Below are positions 2,458 to 17,630 of a stretch of DNA of 31,320 nt, one piece after another; the stretch's first letter is position 1; the number at the start of each line of letters is the position of its first letter. Source of the stretch: a virus; IMG/VR virus record IMGVR_UViG_3300036945_000056, positions 1-31,320 of that record; one strand, given 5' to 3'. The notes below the pieces were generated by a model. That model was not told the DNA's origin, made no database searches, and saw nothing but the letters and a program-made list of their open reading frames with translations. Both the position numbers and the translations under genes were made by a program.

Positions 2458-2896
2458 GCATTTCACACTTGAAGAAGCTACATACAGCGAAACTGCTGTG
2501 CGTATGCACATTGACAATCAGCCAAGCACTTTGCAGCTTGAGAACATGAAACACGCAGCGGCTTGCCTTGAGCCTTTACGGGCTGTTACAGGCCCGTTGC
2601 GGATTAACTCATGGTTACGCCTACCTGAAGTTAACGTAGCCGTTGGTGGCTCCAAGGTGTCTAGTCACATGGATGGTTGGGCAATTGACTTGTCTAGCAC
2701 CAAGCTAACGCCAATTGAGTTGTGCCACAAGGTAGAGGAACTAGGCATCAAGTTTGACCAAATGATTCACGAATATGGAAGGTGGATGCACCTATCTTTT
2801 GCGCCTGAGATGCGTCAGCAGAAGCTGACGATCTTCAAGCCCGAAGGTAAATACAAGCCTGGTATTCTGACCGAAGCCGAATACCATTCAGCTTAA
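2444..2896 (+). CDS. Endolysin, peptidase M15 family
   Basis: A 150-residue protein starting at ATG 2444 with GGGGAAG just upstream inside the previous gene. The N-terminal L-S-E-H-F-T-L-E-E-A matches the start of the Peptidase_M15_3 fold. Zinc ligands of the S-x-H-x-x-G-x-A-x-D motif are His75 and Asp82 and the third is His116 in W-M-H-L-S; Glu110 is close to the catalytic position. It would cut the peptide stem of peptidoglycan. No signal peptide is present, so release depends on the holin. The length is normal for the family. The stop overlaps the converging gene's stop. Confidence 0.9.
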   Translation: MNLSEHFTLEEATYSETAVRMHIDNQPSTLQLENMKHAAACLEPLRAVTGPLRINSWLRLPEVNVAVGGSKVSSHMDGWAIDLSSTKLTPIELCHKVEELGIKFDQMIHEYGRWMHLSFAPEMRQQKLTIFKPEGKYKPGILTEAEYHSA

Positions 2897-3174
2897 ACAG
2901 CTTTCCACTCGCGCTCTTTACGCTTGGCGTTGGACATAACTGTTTTACCAGTTAGTTCAACCATGCCTAACTTTTGCATCTCTGGCAAGCGTCTAGAGAT
3001 TGCATTAGGGTTAAGCAATGTGAAATACGAGATGCCGTCTTTGCCAAGCGGGCCGTATTGCATCAATGCGTTGTGAATCAGTTTAAAGTGTTGACTAGCA
3101 AAAATTTCTGTTGAATCAGCAGCTTCATGACTGGTGATTGGGTCTGTCTTTTTTGCTCTGAAAAAATTAAACAT
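2893..3174 (-). CDS. Winged-helix-like phage protein (93 aa)
   Basis: Starts at 3174 with TAGGAAC about 6 bases upstream on the minus strand. The N-terminus has D-P-I-T-S-H-E-A-A-D, a signature I know from small phage proteins with a winged-helix fold. This is followed by helices, a short turn (F-T-L-L-N-P-N-A-I-S-R-R-L-P-E-M) that could be the recognition helix, then a wing (M-V-E-L-T-G-K-T). Basic C-terminus. It is the last gene of the leftward operon, so it may be a late-acting regulator or a DNA-binding accessory of recombination. Confidence 0.75.
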   Translation of the reverse strand: MFNFFRAKKTDPITSHEAADSTEIFASQHFKLIHNALMQYGPLGKDGISYFTLLNPNAISRRLPEMQKLGMVELTGKTVMSNAKRKEREWKAV

Positions 3175-3248
3175 ATCTGTTCCTATGCAAATGGGTGCTA
3201 ACTGCTACTTTTTTTAGGCAATATCGCCGACAGAAAGCACCCCGTTAA
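3175..3248. other. Intergenic gap in leftward operon
   Basis: 74 bases between the SSB-like gene and the winged-helix gene, the largest gap inside the leftward operon. On the minus strand it holds an A7 run and the ribosome site of the next gene. I looked for a terminator hairpin before the A/T run and found only GGCGATATTGCC, which cannot form a loop of three or more bases. No ORF seen. Confidence 0.4.
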
Positions 3249-3500
3249 TCAGAATGGCACGTCATCATCCGATGGGAAGCCATCGTTAGACTGTTTTGCT
3301 GGCGCTTTGCCGTCTTGTTTAGGCTCAAACAAATAAGCCCACCCTGACCAGCCACCTTCAACCAAAGGCGTCTGATCGAGTTTCAGCATTGGGCCTTTTT
3401 TAGTTTCGATAACGCTGCCGATACGTTGGTAACGAACCTTCTCTTGTCCGTCTTTTTGGTACGTTCCAGCGCGTACCGTTACTTCATAAATTGTTGCCAT
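3249..3500 (-). CDS. Small single-stranded DNA-binding-like protein
   Basis: An 83-residue protein. The first 65 residues form a beta-rich domain (Y-E-V-T-V-R-A-G-T-Y...R-Y-Q-R-I-G-S-V-I-E-T...M-L-K-L-D) that would fit a minimal OB-like fold. The tail is disordered and acidic and ends D-D-D-V-P-F, close to the D-D-D-I-P-F tip by which bacterial SSB recruits partners. Its place next to an Erf annealase and a YqaJ-like exonuclease supports a role in coating ssDNA during recombination. It is half the usual SSB length, so this may be a divergent family. RBS (GAAAG) at about 8 bases. Confidence 0.65.
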   Translation of the reverse strand: MATIYEVTVRAGTYQKDGQEKVRYQRIGSVIETKKGPMLKLDQTPLVEGGWSGWAYLFEPKQDGKAPAKQSNDGFPSDDDVPF

Positions 3501-3509
3501 GTGTTTCTT

Positions 3510-4139
3510 TCAAAATGAGTGTTCTTGTGAGATTTGCTTTACGATTTTGTCGTAGTACTTCTTTGCTTCATCAACCTTAAACTTGATCTTGTCTTCAAGT
3601 GCTTTGTCGCGAACGTACTTAACAATAGTGACTCTGAGTTCAGGGTTGATGTGTTCCACTTGGTGTAAAGCCTTGTCTTCAAAGCCTACTAAGTGATCTG
3701 GTGTGTTAACAAGGCAATAGGCGATATGGGCAAAGTCTAAGTCCCAAAGCCACATATACGCCCGTAGCTGCCATTCGTAAGTCTTGTCTTCACCCTGAGA
3801 GGAAAGGACAGGAAACGTAGCTAGCGACCAACTTGATTTAATGTCAATCACCTGGTCAGCCGTAACAATGTCAGCTTCACCAGTTATCCATTCGTTTGTC
3901 TTACGCTCTGTGTTCTTTTTGTAGTTGCAAAACATCACAGAGTTAAGCAACTCAATAGAACGGTCTTCAACTAGTAAACCTTTCTCGGTGTACTTGCTAG
4001 AGAATCGTTCGTCAAAGCCGTAAACAAACTCTTTGGCTTGTTTGGTAATAGCTGTCTTTGCCCCTACGGACAAGGTTTCATCCTTGCCTTTTGGGTCAGC
4101 CATCAAATCAGCTAGTGATGACGCTCTAATCTTAAGCAT
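3510..4139 (-). CDS. YqaJ/lambda-exonuclease-like nuclease
   Basis: A 209-residue PD-(D/E)XK nuclease. Visible active-site parts are G-E-A-D (87-90), the V-I-D-I-K-S motif with Asp99 and Lys101, and the helix Q-x-x-x-Y at Gln124 to Tyr128, the pattern of YqaJ-type viral recombinases. It would resect dsDNA 5' ends to give 3' overhangs for the Erf protein, whose gene it overlaps by 8 bases. Length is normal. The early R-x-S-x-L-x-D-L-M-A-D N-terminus is also usual for this phage group. Confidence 0.85.
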   Translation of the reverse strand: MLKIRASSLADLMADPKGKDETLSVGAKTAITKQAKEFVYGFDERFSSKYTEKGLLVEDRSIELLNSVMFCNYKKNTERKTNEWITGEADIVTADQVIDIKSSWSLATFPVLSSQGEDKTYEWQLRAYMWLWDLDFAHIAYCLVNTPDHLVGFEDKALHQVEHINPELRVTIVKYVRDKALEDKIKFKVDEAKKYYDKIVKQISQEHSF

Positions 4140-5423: not shown

Positions 5424-5536
5424 TATGATTTTTTGAGACAAGGCTAGGTGCGAAGTCATGAGCGCACCGAAAAGAGTTACCCGTTCTCCTGCCATTGTTT
5501 CTTTTCATCAAACGGGCTGCTAAAAACTGGAAAACA
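5421..5536 (+). promoter_or_regulatory. Promoter and structured leader ahead of ydaU
   Basis: An extended -10, TGATATGAT (5421-5429), overlaps the end of the MazG-like gene. The 100-base leader that follows holds two good stems: GGTGCG (5447-5452) with CGCACC (5463-5468), and CCCGTT (5480-5485) with AACGGG (5511-5516). Neither is followed by a T-run, so they are not simple terminators. No known riboswitch was recognised. See the finding on this leader. Confidence 0.45.
5458..5523 (+). CDS. Possible 21-codon leader peptide
   Basis: ATG 5458 with AGGTG at 5445-5449 in front (8-base spacing) opens a frame of 21 codons (M-S-A-P-K-R-V-T-R-S-P) ending TAA at 5521-5523, 13 bases before the ydaU ATG. 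It lies inside the two hairpins of the leader, so its translation would open or close them. No known leader peptide matches; it may be chance. Confidence 0.25.
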   Translation: MSAPKRVTRSPAIVSFHQTGC

Positions 5537-6295
5537 ATGCACTATTACCAATTCAACATTGGTGACTACAAAAGTCACACGGAACATCTTTCCGAGATGG
5601 AAGATTTGACTTATCGGCGTTTGCTTGATTGGTACTATCTTCACGAAACTCCCATACCACTAGAAATAAACGAGACTGCAAGACAGATTCGTATGCGTTC
5701 GCATAGCGAGTGCATTGCGTTGGTATTGCAAGAGTATTTCGAGCGCACAGAAATTGGCTGGATTCATCACAGGGCAGACAAAGAAATAGCAAAGACAGGC
5801 GAGAAGTCTGAAAAAGCTAGTGCTAGTGCCAAGGCTAGATGGAACAGGGCTAAAGATGCGAACGCATTGCAAACGCAATCCGAAAGCAATGCCACACAGA
5901 ACACAGAACACATAACACAAGACACAAAACACAAGAAGAACGCAACTGTCGTTGCTACGCCTGAAGGCGTTTCACAATATGTTTGGCAAGAGTTTGTTTT
6001 CCACAGAAAAGCCAAGAGAGCAAAAGTAACGGACTTGGTTGTTGAAGGCATCGCCAAAGAGGCAGAAAAGGCAGGATGGTCGCTAGAAGACGCATTGAAA
6101 GAAACAGTTGTTCGCGGATGGCAATCGTTTAAGGCTGATTGGGTTGCTGTAAAAGAATCCCCTGCTGACAAACGCCAAAACCACATGGCTCAGTTGACTC
6201 GCGGAATGTCAACGCCAAAGCCACAACCTTTCTGGTCGCAATCTACAACCGTTCTTGAGGAGATTCCAAATGTGGAACCAAAACGACTTCTGTGA
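5537..6295 (+). CDS. ydaU: DUF1376/YdaU replication protein, O-like
   Basis: A 252-residue protein starting at ATG 5537 (M-H-Y-Y-Q-F-N-I-G-D-Y). The family signature H-L-S-E-M-E-D-L-T-Y-R-R-L-L-D-W-Y-Y-L-H-E-T-P-I-P (residues about 17-41) marks the DUF1376/YdaU winged-helix domain, often the N-terminal part of phage replication initiators. Residues 85-135 are a low-complexity A/K/T/N/Q/H linker whose DNA holds six tandem 7-nt repeats (5894-5935). A second, helical domain (about 140-225) follows, with W-Q-E-F-V-F-H-R-K-A-K-R-A-K and G-W-x-S-F-K-A-D-W. It precedes a lambda P-like gene, so by order and layout it is the O-like origin-binding protein. Confidence 0.8.
   Translation: MHYYQFNIGDYKSHTEHLSEMEDLTYRRLLDWYYLHETPIPLEINETARQIRMRSHSECIALVLQEYFERTEIGWIHHRADKEIAKTGEKSEKASASAKARWNRAKDANALQTQSESNATQNTEHITQDTKHKKNATVVATPEGVSQYVWQEFVFHRKAKRAKVTDLVVEGIAKEAEKAGWSLEDALKETVVRGWQSFKADWVAVKESPADKRQNHMAQLTRGMSTPKPQPFWSQSTTVLEEIPNVEPKRLL
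5866..5935 (+). repeat. Candidate replication origin: inverted repeat plus six 7-nt iterons
   Basis: Six head-to-tail 7-mers of consensus ACACANR fill 5894-5935 (ACACAGA, ACACAGA, ACACATA, ACACAAG, ACACAAA, ACACAAG). Just before them lies the dyad ATTGC (5866-5870) with GCAAT (5875-5879). A 7-base unit is not a codon multiple, so the amino acids differ between units: the repeat is held at the DNA level. This is inside the O-like gene, as the lambda origin is. Confidence 0.5.
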
Positions 6296-6653
6296 TGCTG
6301 ATTCTGGCTTTGATTACATTTTTAGCACCATGAACGCAATCTACGGCGCAAGGTTTGAAACCAACTGGCAAAACGTAGACCCGCAGATCATTCGCCAGGT
6401 ATGGAAAGAACGCCTAGGCCGTTTCCTGACATACAAGCCAAGCCTTGACTATGCGTTAAGCCACCTTAAAGGTGAGTTTCCACCGAGCGCTATTACGTTT
6501 CGTGAGATGTGCAACGCAGGCCCAAACATTCCTGATAAACCTGTTGTTGCTATCACGCGACAAAAAACACAAGCTGAGATTGCAGAAGGTGAGCGCGTAA
6601 AGGCAGATGCACTTGCAAGACTTGCAGCGTTGCGGAAAAGCTACGAATCATGA
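6270..6653 (+). CDS. Lambda P-like helicase-loader family protein
   Basis: A 127-residue protein from ATG 6270 with GAGGAG about 8 bases upstream, overlapping the ydaU end. Core pattern: F-D-Y-I-F-S-T-M-N-A-I-Y-G-A-R-F, then I-R-Q-V-W-K-E-R-L-G-R-F and later F-P-P-S-A-I-T-F-R-E-M-C, matching the replication protein P (PF06992) layout seen in many Burkholderiales phages. Position right after an O-like gene is the lambda order. It would load the host DnaB helicase. The family call is by pattern memory and would need an HMM check. Confidence 0.7.
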   Translation: MWNQNDFCDADSGFDYIFSTMNAIYGARFETNWQNVDPQIIRQVWKERLGRFLTYKPSLDYALSHLKGEFPPSAITFREMCNAGPNIPDKPVVAITRQKTQAEIAEGERVKADALARLAALRKSYES

Positions 6654-15589: not shown

Positions 15590-17630
15590 TAACTCAATCG
15601 GATTCTTAGAGACAGAAACAACCCAACAGCGAACAGACGCACTATCTTTCTATTTGCGTCAGCCTTTGGGTAACGAAGTAGAAGGTAAGTCAGCAATCGT
15701 CACTGGCGAAGTGGCAGAGGCTGTAGATGGTTGTTTGCCTTCACTGGTTCGCATCTTTTCATCGTCTGATGAGGTGGTCAGGTTTGACCCCCGTGGCCCA
15801 CAAGACGAAGCTGGCGCTAAACAAGCAACCGAGTACTGCAATTGGGTGTTCATGCGTGATAACGCTGGCATCATTGTTATGCACGACTGGTTTAAAGACG
15901 CTTTGCTTCAGAAGGTTGGCGTAGTTAAAGCGTATTGGGAAGACAAAGAAGACGTCACGAAAGAAAAGTACCGTGACTTGTCTGATGATGAACTGGCAAT
16001 GCTGCTGTCTGATGAAACAATGGAAGTTGTTGAACAGGACGTAGTAGAGAACGAAATGCTAGACCCTGCTGGTAATCCCGTCTTAGACCAGATGGGTAAG
16101 CCTGTGATGTATTCGTCTAATAGCGTCACAGTGCAAAAGAAAAAGAAGTCTGGTCGTGTGGTGATTGAGAACGTGCCACCAGAGGAATTTCTAATCTCTA
16201 AGCGAGCCAAGAAAAGCCCGTCTGACGCGCCTTTCGTTGCACATCGCCGTCTTATCACCCGAAGCGACTTGATCGCAATGGGCTTTGATAAAGACGTTGT
16301 GGAAGGCTTGCAGGCTTCTAACGCTCTTACTTACTCGCCTGAGTACTTGGCCCGAGTAGCGCCTGGCGAAAACCCAGATGACGGCATCTCTATTGATGAG
16401 TCAATGGAAACCATCGAGGTCTTTGAGTGCTACGTTACTGCTGATATTGACGGTGATGGCATCGCTGAGTTGCGTCAAGTCTTCTACGCTGCTAACGAGA
16501 TTTTGAGTGATGAAGAAACGGATTACATCCCTTTCCACTCACTGTGCCCAATTCCAACACCACACAAGTTCTTTGGTGAGTCGCTGGCAGATCGCACAAT
16601 GGACTTGCAGTTAATCAAGACCACAATCACACGTCAGATTCTTGATAACTTGTATTTGACAAACAACGCCCGTGTGACTGCTGTTGACGGTCAAGTGAAC
16701 TTAGATGACTTGCTGACGGCTACTGCTGGTGGTGTGATTCGTATTAAGTCTCAAGGCGCTGTGCAACAGTTGGCAGTTCAACCTGTGGCGGCGCAGGCTT
16801 TCCCTATGCTTCAGTACTTGGACAGCATCCAACAAAAGCGCACAGGTGTTACAGATGCAAGCCAAGGTCTTGACCCGTCTATCTTGCAGAACGTCACAGC
16901 AGCCGCTGTTGCTTCTATGCAACAAAGCGCAGCAGGCAAGATTGAGATGATTGCACGAATCTTTGCTGAGACAGGCGTTAAGTCACTGTTCAAAGGCATC
17001 TTGCATCTTCTCTGTAAGTACCAAGACAAAGCCCGTATCGTTCGGATGCGTGGTCAGTATGTGTCGTTTGACCCCCGTGAGTGGTCAAACCAGTACGACA
17101 CGGACATTAACGTAGGTTTGGGTGCTGGCAACCGCCAAGAGCAAATGGCGATGTTGTCTATGGTTCTGTCTAAACAAGAGCAAGTCTTGCAGACAATGGG
17201 GCCAACTAACCCGCTGGTGTCTTATGGACAGTACCGCAACACCTTGGGCCGCATGGTTGAAGCTGCTGGCTTTAAGGATTCTGCTGAGTTCTACAAGGCG
17301 ATTAGCCCAGAGCAAGACCAGATGATGAGCCAGCCACAACCGCAACAAGAGCCACCAATGCCGCCTGAGATTCAAGCGTACATGGCTAAGACGCAGGCTG
17401 ACATTCAGGCGCAACAGATGAAGGCACAAGCTGACATTCAGTTGGCCCAACAGAAAGCCGCTGCTGAGTTGCAGTTAATGCGTGAAAAGAACGCTGCCCA
17501 ACTTCAGTTGGAACGTGAAAAAGCCGCTGCTCAGATGCAGTTGAAGGAAGAAGAATTTATGGCTGAAGCACGAATGAAGGCGATGAAGGTTGGTGCTGGC
17601 ATTACGTCTAACATTGAAATACCAGGGTAA
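15546..17630 (+). CDS. Portal protein, P22-like
   Basis: A 694-residue protein. N-terminal features: F-L-E-T-E-T-T-Q-Q-R-T-D-A-L, S-A-I-V-T-G-E-V-A-E-A-V-D-G-C-L-P-S-L-V, characteristic of the P22-type portal family. The middle holds an insertion with K-K-K-K-S-G-R and a domain Y-V-T-A-D-I-D-G-D-G-I-A-E-L-R. The end is a long helix with six exact 11-residue units (616-681), which should form the barrel above the ring. The dodecamer is the DNA entry and exit point and the terminase dock. Preceded by a good coupling to the 61-aa gene. Confidence 0.9.
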   Translation: MSQQKLKAILDSEIDNSIGFLETETTQQRTDALSFYLRQPLGNEVEGKSAIVTGEVAEAVDGCLPSLVRIFSSSDEVVRFDPRGPQDEAGAKQATEYCNWVFMRDNAGIIVMHDWFKDALLQKVGVVKAYWEDKEDVTKEKYRDLSDDELAMLLSDETMEVVEQDVVENEMLDPAGNPVLDQMGKPVMYSSNSVTVQKKKKSGRVVIENVPPEEFLISKRAKKSPSDAPFVAHRRLITRSDLIAMGFDKDVVEGLQASNALTYSPEYLARVAPGENPDDGISIDESMETIEVFECYVTADIDGDGIAELRQVFYAANEILSDEETDYIPFHSLCPIPTPHKFFGESLADRTMDLQLIKTTITRQILDNLYLTNNARVTAVDGQVNLDDLLTATAGGVIRIKSQGAVQQLAVQPVAAQAFPMLQYLDSIQQKRTGVTDASQGLDPSILQNVTAAAVASMQQSAAGKIEMIARIFAETGVKSLFKGILHLLCKYQDKARIVRMRGQYVSFDPREWSNQYDTDINVGLGAGNRQEQMAMLSMVLSKQEQVLQTMGPTNPLVSYGQYRNTLGRMVEAAGFKDSAEFYKAISPEQDQMMSQPQPQQEPPMPPEIQAYMAKTQADIQAQQMKAQADIQLAQQKAAAELQLMREKNAAQLQLEREKAAAQMQLKEEEFMAEARMKAMKVGAGITSNIEIPG
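17391..17588 (+). repeat. Six hendecad repeats at the portal C-terminus
   Basis: Codons 616-681 of the portal gene split into six units of exactly 11 residues, each with A/Q at the start and L/I-Q in the middle and K/E at the end (for example T-Q-A-D-I-Q-A-Q-Q-M-K, A-A-A-E-L-Q-L-M-R-E-K, N-A-A-Q-L-Q-L-E-R-E-K). Hendecads favour a right-handed or straight coiled coil. Confidence 0.65.

What the first reader, a model, noticed from the sequence alone, without database searches (positions are those of the whole stretch)
5866..5935. Six tandem 7-nt repeats inside the O-like gene: candidate origin iterons
ACACANR is repeated six times without a gap at 5894-5935. Seven is not a multiple of three, so the protein reads differently in each unit and the constraint is on DNA. 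Lambda's origin is a set of iterons inside gene O; this gene is at the same place, before a P-like gene. A dyad ATTGC/GCAAT precedes it.
Basis: partly seen in the sequence, partly recalled or inferred. Interest (0 to 1): 0.7.

Follow-up and report, generated by a model that had tools for sequence, protein, structure and literature searches.

The report
Phage replication origin inside its initiator gene
The six 7-letter DNA repeats are one part of a three-part replication origin hidden inside a phage gene (DUF1376/YdaU, officially of unknown function); the same three-part layout recurs in most members of this gene family and resembles the origin of phage lambda, which suggests that the family are replication initiators and makes that directly testable.

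Summary
ACACANR occurs six times without a gap at 5894-5935, beyond chance. Synonymous-site constraint is 0.77 in the 7-mers and 0.92 in the stretch before them, against 0.07 in the C-terminal domain.

The 7-mers are one of three adjacent elements, in fixed order: (1) 11-bp iterons at 5857-5892, with a second cluster at 5693-5718; (2) the strand-asymmetric 7-mer array; (3) inverted repeats at 5942-5970.

The layout recurs across DUF1376 genes. The array has a 6-7-nt period, usually with core ACCA, in all reading frames. The 11-mer sequence tracks the protein's DNA-binding class. The hairpins prefer C(TNNC)G loops. All three elements replicated in 76 held-out genes. Lambda's origin has the same order and a C(TGGC)G hairpin.

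Best reading: a lambda-like origin inside a DUF1376 initiator gene. The initiator docks on the 11-mers, and the 7-mers are the strand-specific opening or loading tract. Element identity and conservation are shown; origin function and mechanism are inferred. No DUF1376 origin was found in the literature searched. New variant of a known kind.

The parts
5537..6295 (+). DUF1376/YdaU gene (252 aa), candidate replication initiator: N-terminal winged-helix-like domain (aa 1-104), disordered linker (about aa 105-140), C-terminal helical domain (aa 147-225)
   Evidence: PF07120 E 1.9e-20; phrog_6451 primosomal protein E 6e-40 and phrog_678 O-like over aa 86-236 E 5e-19; model pLDDT above 80 in the domains, about 48-67 in the linker
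5693..5718 (+). Upstream iteron cluster inside the coding sequence of the DNA-binding domain: ATGCGTTCGCATAGCGAGTGCATTGC
   Evidence: Same dyad ATGCGNNCGCAT as at 5856-5867, the only two exact copies in the window; lag 11 and 22 among the top scores of the whole window; synonymous constraint 0.64 against 0.22 nearby; class-matched motifs at the same place in some other classes
5857..5892 (+). Three 11-bp iterons: TGCGAACGCAT (5857-5867), TGCAAACGCAA (5868-5878), TCCGAAAGCAA (5879-5889), then TGC
   Evidence: TRF period 11; synonymous constraint 0.92, highest in the gene; motif follows the DNA-binding class in 98/101 genes of this class
5894..5935 (+). Six tandem 7-mers ACACANR: strand-asymmetric array (25 A, 12 C, 4 G, 1 T)
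   Evidence: present in the gene family with core ACCA/ACACA/ACCCA at 6-7 nt spacing
5942..5955 (.). Inverted repeat 1: GCAAC-TGTC-GTTGC, loop C(TGTC)G, i.e. C(GACA)G on the bottom strand
   Evidence: TNNC loops 36/58 just after arrays against 3/87 elsewhere, held out 9/21 against 0/49; folds on both strands as ssDNA
5957..5970 (.). Inverted repeat 2: ACGCC-TGAA-GGCGT
6270..6653 (+). Downstream gene, weakly P-like (helicase-loader position)
   Evidence: phrog_109 P-like helicase loader E 7.7e-4; the same place holds an annotated replication protein P, helicase loader, DnaC-like or DnaB gene in relatives

Best explanation
The locus is a lambda-like replication origin embedded in the gene of its own initiator, a DUF1376/YdaU protein. 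The initiator docks on 11-bp duplex iterons (5857-5892, with a second cluster at 5693-5718 that could be brought in by looping). The adjacent 7-mers are the opening tract: a directional, strand-specific series of sites on the A/C-rich strand onto which the initiator (or initiator plus helicase loader) extends when the duplex opens, so that one strand is held and the other is free for helicase loading. The inverted repeat directly downstream marks the far edge of the bubble, probably as a single-strand hairpin on the G/T-rich strand used in loading or priming. Shown: the three elements, their order, their DNA-level constraint, the link between 11-mer sequence and DNA-binding class, and generality across the family. 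Inferred: that this is the origin, that DUF1376 is the initiator, and the role of each element.
For: DNA-level constraint: 7-mer position and not codon position sets conservation; synonymous excess 11-mers 0.92, 7-mers 0.77, upstream cluster 0.64, C-terminal domain 0.07, MWU p 9e-14 for the 5856-5935 stretch. Generality: lag peaks at 7/14/21 and 11/22 in 92 nonredundant DUF1376 genes; ACCA spaced 7 (137 times) or 6 (39) in all frames, reverse complement not; held-out set, array in 61/76 genes against a mean of 0.8 after codon shuffling. Initiator-iteron match: domain tail class against 11-mer class near-diagonal, held out 36/37 and 25/28, unsupervised 6-mer test p 0.0005 and 61/67 recovered with null controls. 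Mosaics: L056/L057/L072/L077/L080 share 88-92% of the N-domain but have unrelated C-domains and keep the array; L067 and L073 have a C-domain 78-79% identical to the window's but another N-domain class and different repeats. Third element. Context: helicase loader, helicase or P gene next door. Lambda: iterons, then ACACAAAAGACAC.., then a 28-nt inverted repeat with C(TGGC)G loop, same order and polarity.
Against: No experiment here or in the papers found shows that a DUF1376 protein binds DNA or starts replication. GC skew is inconclusive. The array is not an especially unstable duplex (z about 0.8), so it is not a classical AT-rich unwinding element. The solved-structure comparison finds only generic winged-helix matches (best Z 7.1). 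The iteron motif classes and the loop rule were formulated on the first set, though they held on new genes; members of one family are not fully independent.
Confidence: 0.78

Rival explanations
1. The 7-mers themselves are the duplex iterons bound by the initiator, and the 11-mers are operator or accessory sites.
For: Tandem, conserved, in the initiator gene.
Against: The 7-mer core (ACCA/ACACA) stays about the same across DNA-binding classes whereas the 11-mers change with the class, so the 11-mers look like the class-specific docking sites. A 7-bp step does not match the helical repeat, and some genes use 6 or mix 6 and 7. In lambda the matching place is the AT-rich tract, not the iterons.
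Confidence: 0.15
2. The repeats encode a conserved protein linker (peptide repeats such as TNNHKP or NATQNTEHITQDTKHK); DNA regularity is a by-product.
For: The array lies in the disordered interdomain linker; 3 x 7 nt gives a 7-aa pseudo-repeat.
Against: Conservation ignores codon position; synonymous sites are frozen; the same DNA core is read in three frames, giving TNNQEP, SPDTKHQ, NQNQNQ or PTPTPT; a synonymous null does not reproduce it.
Confidence: 0.04
3. The block is another cis-acting DNA element inside the gene: an operator for autoregulation, a packaging or recombination site, or a terminator or mRNA structure.
For: C-terminal domains are swapped just after the array, as at a recombination joint; the hairpin on the minus strand scores as terminator-like.
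Against: Terminator-like and promoter-like counts equal chance; the order of elements is that of lambda's known origin; the coupling of iterons to the initiator's own domain and the adjacent helicase-loader genes fit replication best. Recombination may be a consequence of conserved sequence here.
Confidence: 0.1
4. The array is recent replication slippage (a microsatellite) without function.
For: Short-period tandem repeats do arise this way (general knowledge).
Against: Units differ at the two free positions within each array, yet the core is kept across distant genes; constraint extends to the 11-mers and the hairpin.
Confidence: 0.01

Closest known systems
Phage lambda origin in gene O (and P22-like relatives)
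   Same: Origin inside the initiator gene, between DNA-binding and C-terminal domains and before the helicase-loader gene; order iterons, strand-asymmetric A-rich tract (begins ACACAAAAGACAC; ACA every 7-8 nt in several O-type genes), then an inverted repeat with C(TNNC)G loop in lambda, L346 and L347.
   Different: Initiator N-domain is DUF1376, not Phage_rep_O; iterons are 11-bp repeats rather than the four 18-bp iterons annotated in lambda; the tract is a regular 7-mer array and not strongly AT-rich or unstable; a second iteron cluster lies inside the DNA-binding domain's own codons.
Bacterial oriC basal unwinding system (DnaA-boxes plus DnaA-trios; PMC6669920)
   Same: Duplex docking sites followed directly by a short-period, strand-specific repeat that would be read on one strand.
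   Different: Period 6-7 nt instead of 3; no DnaA or AAA+ initiator; DnaA-box matches in the window only at chance level.
Iteron plasmids (RK2/TrfA, F/RepE, pSC101)
   Same: Tandem initiator sites beside an opening region; winged-helix initiators (general knowledge; opening factors in PMC5043065).
   Different: Repeats there lie outside the rep gene and are longer; the Rep proteins belong to other families (general knowledge).

Membership tests
Lambda-type origin (architecture) | Origin located within the initiator gene, upstream of a helicase loader or helicase gene | tested here: met
   for the window (P-like only weakly); for relatives. Position only: that it acts as an origin is inferred.
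Lambda-type origin (architecture) | Multiple initiator-class-specific iterons | tested here: met
   11-mers matched to DNA-binding class. Binding itself not tested.
Lambda-type origin (architecture) | Adjacent AT-rich, easily melted tract | tested here: not met
   A strand-asymmetric tract is at the right place, but it is not unusually unstable (60% AT in the surrounding 50 nt, z 0.8).
Lambda-type origin (architecture) | Inverted repeat on the far side of the tract | tested here: met
   Window 5942-5970; lambda GTCAGAGAATTC-TGGC-GAATCCTCTGAC.
Lambda O protein family (PF04492 / TIGR01610) | Phage_rep_O N-terminal domain | tested here: not met
   Window protein has no match to PF04492 or TIGR01610; lambda O does.
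Lambda O protein family (PF04492 / TIGR01610) | O-like C-terminal region | tested here: met
   phrog_678 'replication initiation O-like' matches aa 86-236, E 4.6e-19.
DUF1376 (PF07120) | Profile match over the domain above the curated cut-off | tested here: met
   73.5 bits against a cut-off of 30.1, residues 2-85.
Functional replication origin | Autonomous replication, initiator binding and strand opening | not testable with these tools
   Needs wet-lab work.
Functional replication origin | Cumulative GC-skew minimum at the site | tested here: inconclusive
   confounded by transcription and by the array's own composition.
DnaA-box/DnaA-trio oriC | DnaA boxes beside 3-nt trios | tested here: not met
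   TTWTNCACA matches at chance level (4 against 5.1 expected); repeat period is 7.

The most novel reading that the evidence does not exclude
The 6-7-nt A/C-rich array is a general, sequence-specific strand-opening code of phage origins, a counterpart of DnaA-trios. Across the DUF1376 family, and in divergent form in lambda and P22-type O origins (ACA every 7-8 nt after the iterons), a non-AAA+ initiator docked on duplex iterons extends along one strand in 7-nt steps, while the opposite strand carries a stable DNA hairpin (cGNNAg loop) that marks the helicase-loading or priming side.
Probability: 0.42. Interest if true: 0.82.

Novelty: new variant of a known kind. Interest (0 to 1): 0.64.

Why it matters
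DUF1376/YdaU is widespread in phages, prophages and phage-plasmids and is listed as of unknown function; full-text searches of the open-access library found no report tying it to an origin. The result proposes a function for the family and predicts the origin to within about 100 bp in each member with an array; E. coli K-12 Rac ydaU has related but irregular repeats. It offers a readable version of the little-understood AT-rich tract and inverted repeat of the lambda origin. It also gives a natural catalogue of initiator tails and matching iterons for recognition-code and swap experiments.

Tried and rejected
GC skew as an origin test: confounded. Duplex instability at the array: not unusual. 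DnaA boxes: at chance level. Promoters and terminators in the region: at chance level. PDB sequence search with the family profile: nothing relevant. Foldseek against PDB: no significant match, with DnaD top at E 0.64; VIA second look: generic winged helices up to Z 7.1. Lambda O-type scan of viral contigs returned only lambda itself, 95-99% relatives and a 66-68% identical group, too narrow for a periodicity test, so the claim about O-type tracts rests on lambda plus six others. Megablast of the window against phages found only matches in the capsid/scaffold gene region at 70-76%. Rfam on the origin region: nothing on the array itself. The tetraloop-stability classification (cGNNAg, gCNNGc) is from memory; the titles returned by a literature search did not offer a source for it and none was opened.

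Full report
WHAT WAS CHECKED. The window is the whole of a 31,320-base IMG/VR virus record, which may be a fragment. At 5894-5935 the sequence ACACANR occurs six times without a gap. It is beyond chance by three nulls: order-1 Markov simulation of the window (30/35 against a maximum of 25 in 200 runs), pattern count (8 against 1.8 expected) and synonymous recoding of the same peptide (p 3.5e-4). The array lies in the linker of a DUF1376/YdaU protein (PF07120, E 1.9e-20); the model shows a confident N-domain (aa 1-104), a disordered linker and a confident C-domain (aa 147-225). The C-terminal part also matches the PHROG family 'replication initiation O-like'.

In 54 distinct arrays from the window and its relatives that share the anchor GCAATGCY, conservation is 0.98/0.96/0.88/0.95/0.99 at 7-mer positions 1-5 and 0.65/0.61 at positions 6-7, while the three codon positions are equal (0.85/0.87/0.86). 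Amino acids at the affected codons vary freely (E/L/R/I/V, I/K/N/T). Over 66 relatives the excess of synonymous identity is 0.92 for the 11-mer stretch, 0.77 for the 7-mers, 0.64 for an upstream stretch at 5690-5720, about 0.22 for the rest of the N-terminal region and 0.07 for the C-terminal domain. The constraint is on DNA.

THREE ELEMENTS, NOT ONE. A second copy of the same motif, ATGCGTTCGCATAGCGAGTGCATTGC, lies at 5693-5718 inside the codons of the DNA-binding domain; ATGCGNNCGCAT occurs exactly only at these two places in the window. Directly after the array are two inverted repeats, GCAAC-TGTC-GTTGC (5942-5955) and ACGCC-TGAA-GGCGT (5957-5970). Folded as single strands, the array is unpaired and bracketed by the hairpins on both strands.

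GENERALITY. 80 viral relatives, 21 phage and plasmid genes, E. coli K-12 ydaU and 80 genes from bacterial genomes were read. In 92 nonredundant members the linker shows lag peaks at 7, 14, 21 and at 11, 22, with a minority at 6; lag-7 identity is 0.62 against 0.46 for synonymous nulls and 0.39 for the N-terminal region. The motif ACCA is spaced by 7 nt 137 times and by 6 nt 39 times, in all three frames, and the reverse complement is not so spaced. The encoded peptides differ completely (TNNQEPITNNHKP, SPDTKHQSPVTN, NQNQNQNQ, PTPTPTPT), so the shared feature is the DNA. K-12 ydaU itself has only irregular repeats.

INITIATOR AND ITERONS GO TOGETHER. The sequence at the end of the DNA-binding domain falls into classes (ARW, GKASA, GGRPKK, HREER), and each goes with its own 11-mer: GCGAACGCA (98/101), GTTCAAC/GTTGAAC (22/25), AACCCAG (27/31), ACGCCTGNNACG (7/8). 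A test without motif lists, restricted to pairs with under 45% N-domain identity, gives 6-mer sharing of 0.113 within and 0.018 between classes (p 0.0005; 61 of 67 classes recovered), and nothing for control regions. Natural mosaics agree. L056, L057, L072, L077 and L080 share 88-92% of the N-domain with the window, keep the repeats and have unrelated C-domains. L067 and L073 have C-domains 78-79% identical to the window's, but N-domains of the other class and, with them, GTTCAAC repeats and an AACANRA array of the same 7-nt period. Class-matched copies of the 11-mers also occur inside the DNA-binding domain's codons in examples of the other classes, such as L086 and L084.

THIRD ELEMENT. Hairpin density peaks in the 0-45 nt after the array; the only other rise is over the dyad-bearing iterons. 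Of 95 distinct hairpins after arrays, 58 have 4-nt loops (87 of 470 elsewhere), and 36 of the 58 loops are TNNC (3 of 87 elsewhere; Fisher p 2e-15), mostly closed by C-G; another 7 are CAAG. Read on the other strand, C(TNNC)G is C(GNNA)G, which from memory is one of the most stable DNA tetraloop classes; I did not find a source in the library.

HELD-OUT REPLICATION. 160 further viral loci were fetched with alignments of other classes; 76 were nonredundant and distant from the first set. Best lag 7, 14 or 21 in 63 of 76; arrays of three or more units in 61 of 76 (codon shuffles: mean 0.8, maximum 4); class match 36/37 (GGRP) and 25/28 (GKAS); TNNC loops 9/21 near against 0/49 far (p 4.5e-6). 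Several of the remaining genes that I read have diverged cores (AACA, ATCA) or partial arrays rather than none; not all were inspected.

WHAT IT WORKS LIKE. Lambda's annotated origin has four iterons in gene O, then ACACAAAAGACACTATTACAAAAG.., then a 28-nt inverted repeat with loop C(TGGC)G. Order and polarity are the same as here. Several lambda O-type relatives show ACA every 7-8 nt in that tract (exactly 7, 7, 7 in a P22-like phage), and two of six further genes show C(TGGC)G or C(TGAC)G hairpins. In lambdoid phages the AT-rich tract is needed for opening, and O binds AT-rich single strands (PMC7466680). In oriC, DnaA-boxes load a filament on adjacent single-strand trios (PMC6669920). The most economical model is: docking on 11-mers; strand-specific engagement of the 7-mers; helicase loading on the freed strand, with the hairpin at its far edge. 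Because the 7-mer core stays about the same when the docking class changes, the 7-mer is probably read by the invariant part of the domain or by a shared partner, and the tail reads the 11-mers. These last points are inference.

LIMITS. No DNA binding or replication data exist for this family in the papers found (open-access only). GC skew is uninformative. The protein is not a member of the lambda O N-domain family, so this is 'works like lambda ori', not 'is a lambda O'. Motif lists were written after seeing the first set; the held-out set and the unsupervised test guard against this only in part.

Noticed in passing
window 5437-5515; L010 2911-2978, L061 2905-2981, L002 2911-2978: An int-alpA RNA (RF02996) lies directly upstream of the DUF1376 gene: below threshold in the window (27.2 bits), above the gathering score in three relatives (37.7-40.8 bits). 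The recurring position next to the initiator gene suggests a link to replication control.
   Followed up: partly
L097 (Limnohabitans phage DC33) 823-1554: The window-type C-terminal domain is joined to a different, non-DUF1376 N-domain, with a 6-nt GAGACA array in the linker: the same layout in another initiator type. The record is filed as Inoviridae although it is 39 kb long.
   Followed up: no
L104 3620-4477 (E. coli K-12 Rac ydaU): K-12 ydaU carries GTTCAAAC-type repeats followed by AAAGATACAGATAAAGAT and a C/G-rich inverted repeat in its linker; a candidate for the Rac prophage origin (oriJ).
   Followed up: partly
L219 (record G009) 2849-3543: Two neighbouring DUF1376 domains in one contig: a duplication or a split gene.
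   Followed up: no
L102 (NZ_CP124656.1): A P. aeruginosa 'plasmid' with Cro/CI-like and CII-like regulators and a YdaU gene beside a primase/helicase: looks like a phage-plasmid.
   Followed up: no
window 17454-17545: A 33-nt tandem repeat (2.8 copies, 11-aa period), the highest-scoring tandem repeat of the window; possibly a coiled-coil repeat in a structural protein.
   Followed up: no
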